From: Clostridium sp.
GTDB lineage: Bacteria; Bacillota_I; Bacilli_A; RF39; UBA660
Length of the DNA stretch: 43,038 bases
Assembly: GCA_023665725.1 (NCBI GenBank)
Contig: JAMPDH010000011.1
Location: forward strand, 1-43,038
Direction of reading: 5' to 3'
Made by a program: the position numbers and the translations under genes
Shown here: piece by piece, positions 14,815 to 28,245 of the stretch
Position numbering within the stretch: position 1 is the first letter of the stretch
Layout: the number at the start of each line of letters is the position of its first letter
The notes under the pieces: model-generated
Databases searched by the model: none
Seen by the model: only the letters and a program-made list of their open reading frames with translations
What the model was told of the DNA's origin: nothing

Positions 14815-14846
14815 GTGATAATTGCTAAAGCAATGCTTATTATCAC
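14815..14846 (+). repeat. Palindrome in the sigK leader
   Basis: Outer arms GTGATAAT (14815-14822) and ATTATCAC (14839-14846) are perfect complements; inner ATTGC/GCAAT (14821-14825 with 14830-14834). It lies 35 bp before the sigK GTG, downstream of the putative promoter, so it could be a 5'-UTR hairpin or an operator. No U-run follows. Confidence 0.45.
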
Positions 14847-14880
14847 AAACTTTGAATATAATTATTTAGAGGTGTGTTTT

Positions 14881-15594
14881 GTGTTAAAAAAATTATTAAA
14901 CTTTTTATTTAAAGATTTTTATATTTTTACGGCAGCATATTCAAACAATGTATTCCCAGATCCACTATCTAAAGAGGAAGAAGAAGAGTATATAAAGAAA
15001 GCTAAACTTGGCGATAAAGATGCTAGGGATAAATTAATAGAACATAATCTTAGATTGGTTGCGCACATAGTAAAAAAATACGAACATAATAAAGAAGATT
15101 CCGATGACTTAATAAGTATAGGCACTATTGGTTTAATTAAGGGTGTTGATTCCTACTCATATAAACATGGTACAAGAATAACTACTTATTGTGCCAGGTG
15201 TATTGAAAATGAAATACTAATGTATTATAGAAGCAATAAAAAAAATAGTAAAAACATAAGTATAAATGAATCAATTGGATTTGATAAAGAAGGAAATGAA
15301 ATAAGTATATTAGATATTCTTAAAACGCCAACGCCTGATTTTGCTATGGATGTACAGTTAAAGGATAATATTAAGTCATTAAAAAAATACTTTAATGTTT
15401 TAACACCAAGAGAAAAAGAAATAATTATTAAAAGATATGGTTTAAATAATGAGGACGAAGTAACTCAAAAGGAGATTGCAAAAGTTATGGGTATTTCCAG
15501 AAGCTATGTTTCACGTATCGAAAAAAGAGCCTTAACTAAAATACTTAGAGAATTTATCAAAAATGAAAATAATAAAAATACAAAGAAAAATTAA
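14881..15594 (+). CDS. sigK: Sporulation sigma factor, pro-sigma-K
   Basis: Late mother-cell sigma factor. The start is GTG (14881) because GAGGTG lies 6 nt before it; this gives 237 residues. Residues 1-19 are the hydrophobic pro-sequence (LLNFLFKDFYIFTAA), with the mature form expected to begin near Tyr20 in YSNNVFP, matching the SpoIVFB cleavage region of known pro-sigma-K. Region 2 shows NLRLVAHIVKKYE, DLISIGTIGLIKGVDSY and ARCIENEILMYYRS; region 4 has ISRSYVSRIEKRAL. The gene is intact, with no skin element. It ends at a bidirectional terminator shared with the convergent unknown gene. Confidence 0.95.
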   Translation: MLKKLLNFLFKDFYIFTAAYSNNVFPDPLSKEEEEEYIKKAKLGDKDARDKLIEHNLRLVAHIVKKYEHNKEDSDDLISIGTIGLIKGVDSYSYKHGTRITTYCARCIENEILMYYRSNKKNSKNISINESIGFDKEGNEISILDILKTPTPDFAMDVQLKDNIKSLKKYFNVLTPREKEIIIKRYGLNNEDEVTQKEIAKVMGISRSYVSRIEKRALTKILREFIKNENNKNTKKN

Positions 15595-24981: not shown

Positions 24982-25019
24982 AAAAAAGCCATTAACTTTT
25001 TGGTTTAAAAATTAATGAC
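24982..25019 (-). terminator. spoVA operon terminator
   Basis: Stem GCCATTAA/TTAATGAC (24988-24995 with 25012-25019), overlapping the spoVAE stop, followed by TTTTTTA on the minus strand. Confidence 0.7.
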
Positions 25020-25342
25020 AAGAAAAACGAAAATATTATTGCTGCTGATATACCAGAAGCTGTTAGATCAAACATGCCCATAATTAATCCCATCGGGCCT
25101 ATATCAAGTGCTGTTACCATTGCACCATGGGTAAGTAAATGCCCAAAACTTGTAATCGGTACTAGTGCTCCTCCACCTACTATTAATACTATTTTATCAT
25201 ATATTCCAAATATATCTAAAAATGCGCCTAATACAACAAATATAGTAGTTATATGGCCAGGAGTCAGTTTAGTATTATCAAGTATAAGTTGCCCTATTAA
25301 GCAAATTAAACCACAAAATAGAAATGAATATATATATTGCAT
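24992..25342 (-). CDS. spoVAE: Stage V sporulation protein AE
   Basis: Integral membrane part of the SpoVA channel that moves dipicolinic acid into the forespore and out during germination. It has 116 residues with three to four hydrophobic helices; the PGHITTIFVVLGAFLDIFGIYDK and GALVPITSFGHLLTHGA segments are the family signature. AGGAGG-like GGAGGTAA precedes the ATG, which overlaps the spoVAD stop. Last gene of spoVAC-AD-AE, the minimal set common in Clostridia. Confidence 0.95.
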   Translation of the reverse strand: MQYIYSFLFCGLICLIGQLILDNTKLTPGHITTIFVVLGAFLDIFGIYDKIVLIVGGGALVPITSFGHLLTHGAMVTALDIGPMGLIMGMFDLTASGISAAIIFSFFLSLIFKPKS

Positions 25343-26328
25343 TATATTACCTCCAAACTAACTGCATGTGCAATACTAGGAATACTTTGTTTAAGATTAA
25401 CAAGTGTTGGTGACATTAATGCTCCGGTTGCAACTAATAAAACCTTTTTTAGTTCATTATTTTTCATCCTATTAAGTATATATGTATATGCAACAAGAGG
25501 TAAACAAGCTGGTCCACTACCTCCTGAATAAACAGGTTGTTTATTTATATCAAATATCATACATGCACTATCATCATAATTTTTTAAAATGATATTATAT
25601 TCTTCCTTCATATATTCTTTTAATATATCTTTACCATGTATTCCTAAATCGCCTGTTAAAATTAAATCATAATAATCAGGTGTCCTACCTGTTTCTTTTA
25701 AATGTGTATATATAGTATCTGCTGCCGCAATTGCCATAACTCCACCCATATTGAATACATCTTTTACACCCATATCCATTACTCTTCCAATTGTTCCACT
25801 TTCTATTTTAATATTACCAACATCACTGGATATATAACAACTAGCACCACCTGTAGTTGTGAAGGTAGTATAATTTTTCTTAGGAGCTCCATACTCAACT
25901 GGATATCTAAATTGTTTTTCTGCCGAATTATTATGTGAAGATACTGAAACAATAACATTTGATACTTGTTTTTTATCTACCATATTAGAAGCTATTATTA
26001 TTCCTTCTGTAGAACTTGCACATGCATTATATATTCCCAAAAATGGAATGCCAAGTTTACTTGCTGCATAATTTGATGAAGTAATTTGATTAAGTAAATC
26101 ACCCGATATATGTAAATCTATATTTGTTTCTGATTTATTAATCTTTTTTAATAAAAGTTTAACACTTTCATATATTAATTTACTTTCTGCAAGTTCAAAA
26201 CTTTTTTCTCCAAAATAGAAATCCTTGTAAGTTTTATCATATAGTTTTCCAAATGGCCCATTTGATTCATATGGCCCTGCTATAGTGGAAGTACCATTTA
26301 AATAAACATTATCATATTTTATAGTCAT
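25342..26328 (-). CDS. spoVAD: Stage V sporulation protein AD
   Basis: Peripheral SpoVA protein that binds dipicolinic acid; thiolase-like fold, 328 residues. Typical segments: GPFGKLYDKTYKDFYFGEKSFELAE, LGIYNACASSTEGIIIAS, VSSHNNSAEKQFRYPVEYG and the C-terminal GSGPACLPLVAY. The Cys in NACASS corresponds to the thiolase position but is not used for catalysis in this family. GGAGGATA precedes the ATG. Between spoVAC and spoVAE with almost no spacing. Confidence 0.96.
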   Translation of the reverse strand: MTIKYDNVYLNGTSTIAGPYESNGPFGKLYDKTYKDFYFGEKSFELAESKLIYESVKLLLKKINKSETNIDLHISGDLLNQITSSNYAASKLGIPFLGIYNACASSTEGIIIASNMVDKKQVSNVIVSVSSHNNSAEKQFRYPVEYGAPKKNYTTFTTTGGASCYISSDVGNIKIESGTIGRVMDMGVKDVFNMGGVMAIAAADTIYTHLKETGRTPDYYDLILTGDLGIHGKDILKEYMKEEYNIILKNYDDSACMIFDINKQPVYSGGSGPACLPLVAYTYILNRMKNNELKKVLLVATGALMSPTLVNLKQSIPSIAHAVSLEVI

Positions 26329-26333
26329 ATTTT

Positions 26334-26774
26334 TTATCCTCCAAATATTAAAAGTCTAATAAGTCCAAATATATATGCACTTACAACTCCAAATACTATT
26401 ACACTTCCAGCTAATTTAAACATATTAGCACCTATTCCTGTTATCATGCCTTCTTTTCTATATTCTAAAGTTGCACTCATCATAGCATGAGCAAAGCCTG
26501 TTATAGGAACTATTAGACCACATTTAGCAAAATTTACAAATTTGTCAAAAAAACCAAAGCATGTAAATAAGCATCCTATAAATATAAGTGTTGTTATCAT
26601 AAATACTGATGCATTAGATGTTGATATTGAAAAAATGTATGAATAAATCCCTACTAAAGCATGTCCTATTACTCCCATAAGTCCACCTATTAAAAATGAA
26701 ATAATTCCGTTTAATAAAATTTTTTCTTTAGGAGTATTTTTATTTACTATTTGTTGATATTTTTTCTTTTCCAT
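26334..26774 (-). CDS. spoVAC: Stage V sporulation protein AC
   Basis: Mechanosensitive-like membrane subunit of the SpoVA channel. The start is ATG 26772-26774, 6 nt after AGGAGG, giving 146 residues. Family signatures: FLIGGLMGVIGHALVGIY, LTRIGCLFT-like region LIFIGCLFTCFGFFDKFVNFAKCGLIVPITGFAHAM is recognisable in parts, and a conserved MISAT-like stretch appears as MMSATLEYRKEG. Four or five membrane helices. It begins a transcription unit separate from sigF because a terminator lies between them; probably a forespore (sigma-G) unit, which is inference. Confidence 0.94.
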   Translation of the reverse strand: MEKKKYQQIVNKNTPKEKILLNGIISFLIGGLMGVIGHALVGIYSYIFSISTSNASVFMITTLIFIGCLFTCFGFFDKFVNFAKCGLIVPITGFAHAMMSATLEYRKEGMITGIGANMFKLAGSVIVFGVVSAYIFGLIRLLIFGG

Positions 26775-26864: not shown

Positions 26865-27524
26865 TTATTTTGTAAGGTTATGATTTAATTTTTGTAAAAT
26901 CTTATTTTCATACCTAGAAACTTTAACTTGACTCATTCCTAATATTTTAGCAGTTTCCATTTGGGTTAAATCATTACTATACCTTTTTTCTATTATTCTT
27001 TTTTCATCATCACTAAGCTTATTTAGTTCATCTCTTAACATTATTAATTCATCTATGTCTTTACATGGTGATGCTATAGTATCTTCTAGTGTTATATCCT
27101 TCCCATCATTACTTATAACTCTATCAATACTTTCTATTGGCATACATGCCTTCAATGAATCTGCTATAATATATTCAGGGATTTCTAAATAAGAACTAAG
27201 TTCTTCTATACTTGGTTCCCTCATTAATCTTTGGGATAAAATAGTTGTAGCTTTCTCTATTCTAGTATTTAATTTAATCATATCTCTACTAACATTTACA
27301 CCTTTATCTTCTCTGGTATACTTTAATACTTCACCAAGTATATATTTATAAGCATAGGTACTAAATTTATTATCATAACTATTATTATAGTTCCTATGTG
27401 CTTTCATAAGACCTACACAACCTGCTTGAAATAAATCTTCTATATCGCTATATTTTCCATAAAGATTAGCAATTTTATAAATCATATTTTTATTTTGTTC
27501 TATTAATTGAGTTTCTGTATCCAT
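26865..27524 (-). CDS. sigF: Forespore sigma factor, SigF-like (SigF/SigG subfamily)
   Basis: Sigma-70 family factor, 219 residues from ATG 27522-27524 (AAAGGAGG 5 nt upstream). Region 2: DIEDLFQAGCVGLMKAHRNY, NKFSTYAYKYILGEVLKYTRED; region 3: EPSIEELSSYLEIPEYII; region 4: LGMSQVKVSRYENKIL. The subfamily is SigF/SigG/SigB. I favour SigF because it follows a SpoIIAA-like gene by 11 bp and the unit has a Spo0A box upstream, as in the classical spoIIA operon. The expected spoIIAB gene is missing between them. SigG cannot be fully excluded by sequence alone. Confidence 0.85.
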   Translation of the reverse strand: MDTETQLIEQNKNMIYKIANLYGKYSDIEDLFQAGCVGLMKAHRNYNNSYDNKFSTYAYKYILGEVLKYTREDKGVNVSRDMIKLNTRIEKATTILSQRLMREPSIEELSSYLEIPEYIIADSLKACMPIESIDRVISNDGKDITLEDTIASPCKDIDELIMLRDELNKLSDDEKRIIEKRYSNDLTQMETAKILGMSQVKVSRYENKILQKLNHNLTK

Positions 27525-27535
27525 AAACTCCTCCT

Positions 27536-27880
27536 TTATATTCCTATACACTCAAGCGCTGATAACTCATCTTGTATTTCTCCCATATATTTTAATAACC
27601 TACTATTAATTATCTTTTCTCTAACTAAACTATTAATTCCGCATAATAATATTTTACCTTTATTTTGATTACATAATTCATAGTTAAAAAATAACGCATT
27701 GATTCCTTTTATATCTATATTTGTAACTTCCGACATATTAAAAACCACATTTCTGATTCCATTATCTTTTATCATATCTGTTACTTCTTCGTTAAGTTTT
27801 GGTACTGTTGTTTTATTTAAAATTCCACTAAGTCTAATAAACAAAATTCCTTTTCTAAACTCAACTTGGATATCAAGCAT
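27536..27880 (-). CDS. spoIIAA: SpoIIAA-like STAS anti-anti-sigma protein without the phosphoserine
   Basis: STAS-domain protein of 114 residues, colinear with SpoIIAA (ILFIRLSGILN, IRNVVFNMSEV, GKILLCGINSLVREKI). The start is ATG 27878-27880 with GAGGTG 5 nt upstream. In SpoIIAA the loop DSSG carries the phosphorylated Ser; here the same position reads Asp56-Ile57-Lys58-Gly59, so the phospho-acceptor is absent. It precedes the sigma factor by 11 bp with no anti-sigma gene between. It may be a constitutive, non-phosphorylatable form or may bind a different partner. Family call firm; function uncertain. Confidence 0.85.
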   Translation of the reverse strand: MLDIQVEFRKGILFIRLSGILNKTTVPKLNEEVTDMIKDNGIRNVVFNMSEVTNIDIKGINALFFNYELCNQNKGKILLCGINSLVREKIINSRLLKYMGEIQDELSALECIGI

Positions 27881-27930: not shown

Positions 27931-27940
27931 TTCGACAAAA
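27931..27940 (-). promoter_or_regulatory. Spo0A box upstream of spoIIAA-sigF
   Basis: Perfect TTTTGTCGAA on the minus strand (complement of 27931-27940), 51 bp upstream of the spoIIAA start and followed by ATTGTATAAA, a possible -10. This fits control of a spoIIA-type operon by Spo0A~P. Confidence 0.65.
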
Positions 27941-27947
27941 CTAGAAT

Positions 27948-28166
27948 TTATTTTTTTGATAACCTTAATACAAATAAAGACATAATTGATATTATGAAAA
28001 ATAAAAATGGAAATGAAAAAACATTATAATTTGATTCGCTTTTTAATAATTTTTCCTCTAAACTTTCCGCATACTGTGTACTTAATTTTAATTTGCTTTC
28101 AGTATTAGATAAATCACTTTTTAGTATTTCTATTTTTTCATTTAAAGTATTTATATCATTATTCAT
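27948..28166 (-). CDS. Small tail-anchored coiled-coil protein
   Basis: A 72-residue protein from ATG 28164-28166 (GAGAGGAGG 5 nt upstream). Residues 1-45 form a coiled coil (heptads with Leu/Ile and many Glu, Lys, Ser), and residues about 50-68 a hydrophobic segment (VFSFPFLFFIISIMSLFVLR) ending in RLSKK, so a C-terminal membrane anchor. No family recognised. It is upstream of the SpoIIAA-like gene in the same direction, with the Spo0A box between, so it is likely a separate unit. A role in the same process is only a guess. Confidence 0.65.
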   Translation of the reverse strand: MNNDINTLNEKIEILKSDLSNTESKLKLSTQYAESLEEKLLKSESNYNVFSFPFLFFIISIMSLFVLRLSKK

Positions 28167-28245
28167 AAATCCTCCTCTCACTACTTATATACTACAAAAG
28201 TATTAGAAATCCTTTTTTTATACAATAATTTTTTATATTTTGACA

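What the first reader, a model, noticed from the sequence alone, without database searches (positions are those of the whole stretch)
26865..27880. spoIIA-type operon lacking spoIIAB
In the classical operon SpoIIAA, SpoIIAB and sigma-F are adjacent, and SpoIIAB is the anti-sigma kinase. Here the SpoIIAA-like gene is followed after 11 bp by the sigma factor; there is no room for spoIIAB. Either the anti-sigma gene has moved, or sigma-F is held in check in another way.
Basis: partly seen in the sequence, partly recalled or inferred. Interest (0 to 1): 0.75.

Follow-up and report, generated by a model that had tools for sequence, protein, structure and literature searches.

The report
Sporulation sigma operon without its kinase
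In a huge lineage of tiny-genome gut bacteria, the kinase and the phosphatase that control the first spore-specific transcription factor in textbook spore-formers are gone, and the protein they act on survives without the serine they would modify, so these bacteria must restrain that factor in another way.

Summary
A SpoIIAA-type STAS gene (27536-27880, -) is followed after 11 bp, which hold a Shine-Dalgarno, by sigma-F (26865-27524, -) and spoVAC/AD/AE; there is no spoIIAB. It is neither an assembly error nor local. In 98 genomes of the same family (97 genera) no SpoIIAB, no SpoIIE and no SpoIIE-type phosphatase domain reaches its cut-off; same-class outgroups keep a normal STAS(DSSG)-SpoIIAB-sigF order. 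The STAS is not a normal SpoIIAA: the phospho-serine is S/T in only 9 of 143 relatives (S in 28 of 28 outgroups), neighbouring switch residues are lost, and different positions are now nearly invariant. It is under purifying selection. A Spo0A box lies about 58 bp upstream in most relatives. In about a dozen genomes the STAS is gone too and sigF stands alone, mostly behind the Spo0A box. The lineage is very probably RF39 (Bacilli); a 2024 survey already noted spoIIAB and spoIIE as reduced or absent there. New here: the retained, phospho-dead, co-translated SpoIIAA, its changed conserved positions, and the stepwise dismantling. Best reading: sigma-F is restrained mainly at transcription by Spo0A, with the STAS a dispensable, kinase-independent modulator. 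Direct STAS-sigma binding is possible but unsupported.

The parts
27931..27938 (-). Spo0A box TTGTCGAA, 58 bp upstream of the STAS start codon
   Evidence: Read. Same box in 114 of 142 relatives' upstreams against 0.7 expected, mostly 55-64 bp upstream
27536..27880 (-). SpoIIAA-type STAS protein (114 aa), phospho-serine replaced (D-I-K-G instead of D-S-S-G)
   Evidence: AlphaFold pLDDT 95.3; Foldseek best match SpoIIAA 1thn_B, TM 0.93
27525..27535 (-). 11-bp gap with Shine-Dalgarno AGGAGG; the place where spoIIAB lies in outgroups
   Evidence: outgroups L085-L114 carry SpoIIAB here
26865..27524 (-). Sigma-F (SpoIIAC), 219 aa, diverged
   Evidence: best PDB match 1l0o_C, sigma-F of the SpoIIAB-sigma-F complex; tree
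26334..26774 (-). SpoVAC
   Evidence: TIGR02838, 159 bits, cut-off 164
25342..26328 (-). SpoVAD
   Evidence: NF006160, 403 bits, over its cut-off of 402
24992..25342 (-). SpoVAE
   Evidence: TIGR02839, 130.9 bits, cut-off 131.1
14815..15594 (+). Sigma-K; with sigma-E/SpoIIGA and sigma-G elsewhere in the genome it completes the sporulation sigma set
   Evidence: TIGR02846, 302.9 bits, cut-off 298.65; sigma-G L197, sigma-E and SpoIIGA L198

Best explanation
This is the spoIIA-spoVA locus of a lineage (very probably GTDB order RF39, class Bacilli) whose ancestor lost the whole SpoIIAB/SpoIIE partner switch: the anti-sigma kinase, the phosphatase and the phosphorylatable serine of SpoIIAA (shown by sequence). 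The SpoIIAA orthologue survives as a STAS protein that cannot be phosphorylated at that site, encoded just ahead of sigma-F behind a Spo0A box. Inferred mechanism: sigma-F is kept off mainly by not being made until Spo0A~P turns the operon on. The STAS, made together with sigma-F, is a dispensable modulator that no longer answers to a kinase; its partner is unknown. Compartment specificity, which SpoIIAB/SpoIIE give in Bacillus, must come from something not yet identified.
For: No SpoIIAB over cut-off in 98 family and 146 order genomes; 40 of 198 class genomes are positive. No SpoIIE at E<=1e-5 in 98 genomes and no SpoIIE-type phosphatase domain over cut-off, with working controls. Phosphosite S/T in 9 of 143 family STAS against S in 28 of 28 outgroups. 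STAS-sigma adjacency in 144 loci. Spo0A box in 114 of 142 upstreams against 0.7 expected. Spo0A at E<=1e-20 in 86 of 98 genomes. STAS pN/pS 0.03-0.30, mostly below 0.12, in close pairs. In STAS-less genomes that keep sigF, a Spo0A box lies directly before sigF in most. The family's sigma-F is one clade apart from the SpoIIAB-bearing outgroups (100/99).
Against: Spo0A acts before septation, so transcription alone does not explain forespore-only activity. An unrelated or unrecognisable anti-sigma could exist; the search for CsfB/Gin was uninformative because its control did not ring. Nearly all genomes are draft MAGs. Spore formation has not been observed here.
Confidence: 0.6

Rival explanations
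1. The STAS protein has become a direct, kinase-free regulator (anti-sigma or chaperone) of sigma-F, made in step with it by translational coupling.
For: Gap of -20 to +30 bp in 141 of 143 loci; strong purifying selection; loss of the switch residues with gain of different near-invariant ones: E7, G11, F14, R16, N48, C80, E105 in window numbering; the roughly nine genomes without sigma-F also lack the STAS.
Against: AlphaFold of the read-through STAS-sigma chain places the two without confidence (pTM 0.38, 36 rows). The STAS is lost many times (14 changes on the tree, at least 6 forced by well-supported branches) while sigF stays. Sigma-F positions newly conserved in the family stay conserved in STAS-less genomes. 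No natural fusion found.
Confidence: 0.25
2. SpoIIAB is replaced by another anti-sigma elsewhere in the genome: a histidine-kinase ATPase domain, CsfB/Gin, or an unknown small protein.
For: The own genome is 95% complete; histidine kinases give weak SpoIIAB-model hits; the Gin search could not exclude CsfB.
Against: A replacement kinase acting through SpoIIAA would need the serine, which is gone. The two short SpoIIAB-like frames inspected in relatives are pieces of histidine kinases. No SpoIIE-type phosphatase.
Confidence: 0.12
3. The STAS is a decaying remnant and sporulation itself is being lost.
For: Some genomes have lost the STAS, one locus shows a broken STAS frame (L134), and nine or so genomes lack sigma-F.
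Against: pN/pS of the STAS is as low as that of sigma-F in close pairs. New near-invariant residues. Spo0A, sigma-E/SpoIIGA, sigma-G, sigma-K and SpoVA are all present in the window's genome.
Confidence: 0.1
4. Assembly or annotation error removed spoIIAB.
For: The genome is a 29-contig draft.
Against: Same junction in 144 loci from many assemblies.
Confidence: 0.01

Closest known systems
spoIIA operon of Bacillus (spoIIAA-spoIIAB-sigF) followed by spoVA
   Same: Order of the outer genes, STAS fold (TM 0.93 to Geobacillus SpoIIAA), sigma-F as best equivalog, Spo0A box upstream, spoVA genes downstream
   Different: No spoIIAB, no SpoIIE in the genome, phospho-serine of SpoIIAA lost, switch region not conserved
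RF39 sporulation gene set as surveyed in PMC10868615 (Microb Genom 2024;10:001176)
   Different: Its main text does not name spoIIAA or sigF (no occurrence), nor the lost phospho-serine, the shortened operon, the Spo0A box, or sigF standing alone
CsfB/Gin, the kinase-free anti-sigma of sigma-G in Bacillus (PMC3174212)
   Same: Shows that a sporulation sigma factor can be inhibited without a GHKL kinase
   Different: Not a STAS protein; according to that paper it does not bind wild-type sigma-F; not found here, but the search had no working control

Membership tests
SpoIIAA (anti-sigma-F antagonist) | NCBIfam equivalog TIGR02886 over its cut-off | tested here: not met
   53.7 bits against 114.75; the superfamily TIGR00377 is met (55.0 against 53.45)
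SpoIIAA (anti-sigma-F antagonist) | STAS fold | tested here: met
   Model pLDDT 95.3; best PDB match 1thn_B, TM 0.93, 30% identity
SpoIIAA (anti-sigma-F antagonist) | Phosphorylatable serine in D-S-S-G | tested here: not met
   D-I-K-G in the window; S/T in 9 of 143 relatives
SpoIIAA (anti-sigma-F antagonist) | First gene of the sigF operon, under Spo0A | tested here: met
   Position and Spo0A box by sequence; regulation itself not tested
SpoIIAA (anti-sigma-F antagonist) | Binds SpoIIAB and is dephosphorylated by SpoIIE | tested here: not met
   Neither partner is found in the genome
Sigma-F (SpoIIAC) | NCBIfam equivalog TIGR02885 over its cut-off | tested here: not met
   171.6 bits against 321.45; still the best curated sigma equivalog
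Sigma-F (SpoIIAC) | Distinct from a sigma-G in the same genome, upstream of spoVA | tested here: met
   Separate sigma-G at L197 (354.8 bits to SigG); spoVAC/AD/AE downstream
Sigma-F (SpoIIAC) | Groups with sigma-F of SpoIIAB-bearing relatives | tested here: inconclusive
   Two clean sides, family and outgroup; sigma-G was not in the tree, so the tree alone does not separate sigma-F from sigma-G
Partner-switching module (RsbW/SpoIIAB type) | GHKL anti-sigma kinase, STAS antagonist, PP2C phosphatase | tested here: not met
   Only the STAS is found
Order RF39 | GTDB placement | tested here: inconclusive

The most novel reading that the evidence does not exclude
Forespore-specific sigma-F activity is achieved without any partner switch, with a former SpoIIAA turned into a direct sigma-F-binding protein through newly conserved residues: a STAS protein acting on a sigma factor itself.
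Probability: 0.2. Interest if true: 0.85.

Novelty: new variant of a known kind. Interest (0 to 1): 0.62.

Why it matters
SpoIIAB/SpoIIE control of sigma-F is the textbook first checkpoint of endospore formation and is treated as part of the core. A lineage of about a hundred genera that mostly keeps Spo0A and sigma-F (and, in the window's genome, also sigma-E/SpoIIGA, sigma-G, sigma-K and SpoVA) but lacks this checkpoint is a natural experiment. It asks what the switch is really needed for, and how cell-type specificity can be had without it. The graded series (AA-AB-F, phospho-dead AA-F, F alone) makes the order of loss readable.

Tried and rejected
Moved spoIIAB: rejected by family-, order- and class-wide searches. 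Two short SpoIIAB-like frames in relatives turned out to be histidine-kinase pieces (L246, L247). Natural STAS-sigma fusion: none. AlphaFold of the in-frame read-through STAS-sigma chain (stop codon read as Gly, as a linker): pTM 0.38, no confident placement. Sigma-F columns conserved only where SpoIIAB exists: just four, and unremarkable; the linker region 157-180 of sigma-F, looked at for SpoIIAB contacts, aligned too poorly to judge. CsfB/Gin: search uninformative, its control did not ring.

Full report
What is there. On the minus strand a 114-residue STAS protein (27536-27880) is followed after 11 bp by a 219-residue sigma factor (26865-27524) and by SpoVAC, SpoVAD and SpoVAE. The 11 bp are a Shine-Dalgarno and spacer, so there is no room for spoIIAB. 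The sigma factor is closest to sigma-F among curated equivalogs (171.6 bits; SigG 129.7 at best), and its best PDB match is the sigma-F of the SpoIIAB-sigma-F complex 1l0o. It is well below the family cut-off (321), whereas the sigma-G of the same genome is much nearer its own (354.8 of 372). Sigma-E with SpoIIGA, sigma-K and Spo0A are also present.

Is spoIIAB elsewhere? No. In the own genome the listed hits of the SpoIIAB and HATPase_c_2 models all lie in frames of 349-756 residues. In 98 genomes of the family (97 genera) and 146 of the order no match reaches the SpoIIAB cut-off. In the class 40 of 198 genomes do, at 141-186 bits, so the model works at this distance. In those outgroups the order is STAS, SpoIIAB, sigma-F, and all 28 aligned STAS proteins have the phospho-serine. 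SpoIIE is absent from all 98 family genomes at E<=1e-5, and no SpoIIE-type phosphatase domain passes its cut-off in any; both searches ring in B. subtilis.

How general is the pair? A STAS match is found in 75 of 98 family genomes. In 144 loci, including named MAGs from public records, the STAS is directly followed by sigma-F; the median gap is 8 bp and 141 of 143 lie between -20 and +30 bp. Some of the 144 are the same or near-identical genomes reached by two searches. This excludes an assembly error.

What happened to the STAS? It folds as SpoIIAA (pLDDT 95.3; TM 0.93 to Geobacillus SpoIIAA). The serine that SpoIIAB phosphorylates and SpoIIE dephosphorylates is serine in 28 of 28 outgroups but S or T in only 9 of 143 family members, where the site varies freely. 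Other outgroup-conserved residues of the same region (the Phe before the motif, the Gly after it, the Arg of helix 2, a late Gly) are lost as well. Different positions, variable in outgroups, are now nearly invariant: in window numbering E7, G11, F14, R16, N48, C80 and E105. Close pairs show strong purifying selection on the STAS (pN/pS 0.03-0.30, mostly below 0.12), comparable to sigma-F. So the protein is kept for a purpose other than the phospho-switch.

How is the operon controlled? TTGTCGAA, the Spo0A box, lies 58 bp upstream of the STAS start (27931-27938). It occurs in 114 of 142 relatives' upstreams against 0.7 expected by a first-order shuffle, mostly 55-64 bp upstream.

What comes after? 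Of the family genomes without a STAS match, 13 keep a sigma-F-like gene (two of these, L220 and L221, score weakly). Upstream of sigF no STAS is recognisable, and in nine of the 13 a TGTCGA box sits 55-71 bp before sigF itself. About nine STAS-less genomes lack sigma-F altogether and look like non-sporulators. On the sigma-F tree the family is one side of a fully supported branch (100/99), consistent with one ancestral loss of SpoIIAB; loss of the STAS needs about 14 changes, at least six of them forced by well-supported branches. One of the STAS-less loci, L134, carries a broken STAS frame, which could be decay or a sequencing error.

Mechanism. Shown by sequence: loss of kinase, phosphatase and phospho-serine; retention of the STAS next to sigma-F; a Spo0A box. 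Inferred: sigma-F is restrained chiefly by Spo0A-dependent transcription, and the STAS tunes it or another partner without phosphorylation. Direct STAS-sigma-F binding is possible; the one computational probe gave no support (pTM 0.38 on 36 in-frame read-through rows; a shallow alignment, so a weak negative), and sigma-F positions newly conserved in the family are nearly as conserved where the STAS is missing. How forespore specificity arises remains open.

What is known. [quoted passage not shown] Its main text does not name spoIIAA or sigF. The absence is therefore known at survey level. The retained phospho-dead SpoIIAA, its changed conservation and the stepwise dismantling were not found in the papers searched; subscription papers were not searchable.

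Noticed in passing
L239:1721-1975, L240:1760-2008 (also L242, L244): A second, truncated STAS-like protein of about 80 residues, weakly similar to SpoIIAA (E 9e-5), encoded in L239 just upstream of yqfC-yqfD (a YqfC-like frame also follows it in L240). It also lacks D-S-S-G.
   Followed up: partly
27948-28181 (-): A 77-residue protein with a coiled-coil-like N-terminal part and a C-terminal membrane segment directly upstream of the Spo0A box; similar proteins stand there in L016, L115 and L116, and a similar-looking one upstream of the broken STAS of L134.
   Followed up: partly
L209-L219: sigF without any recognisable STAS or SpoIIAB, with a Spo0A box directly upstream in most.
   Followed up: yes
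L134:3450-3878: STAS reading frame broken in the middle upstream of an intact sigF; decay or sequencing error not told apart.
   Followed up: partly
own genome, loci L203-L205: Further sigma-70 region-2 proteins beyond the sporulation set, two of them with long extra C-terminal parts (396 and over 600 residues); 11 region-2 hits in a 1.1-Mb genome.
   Followed up: no
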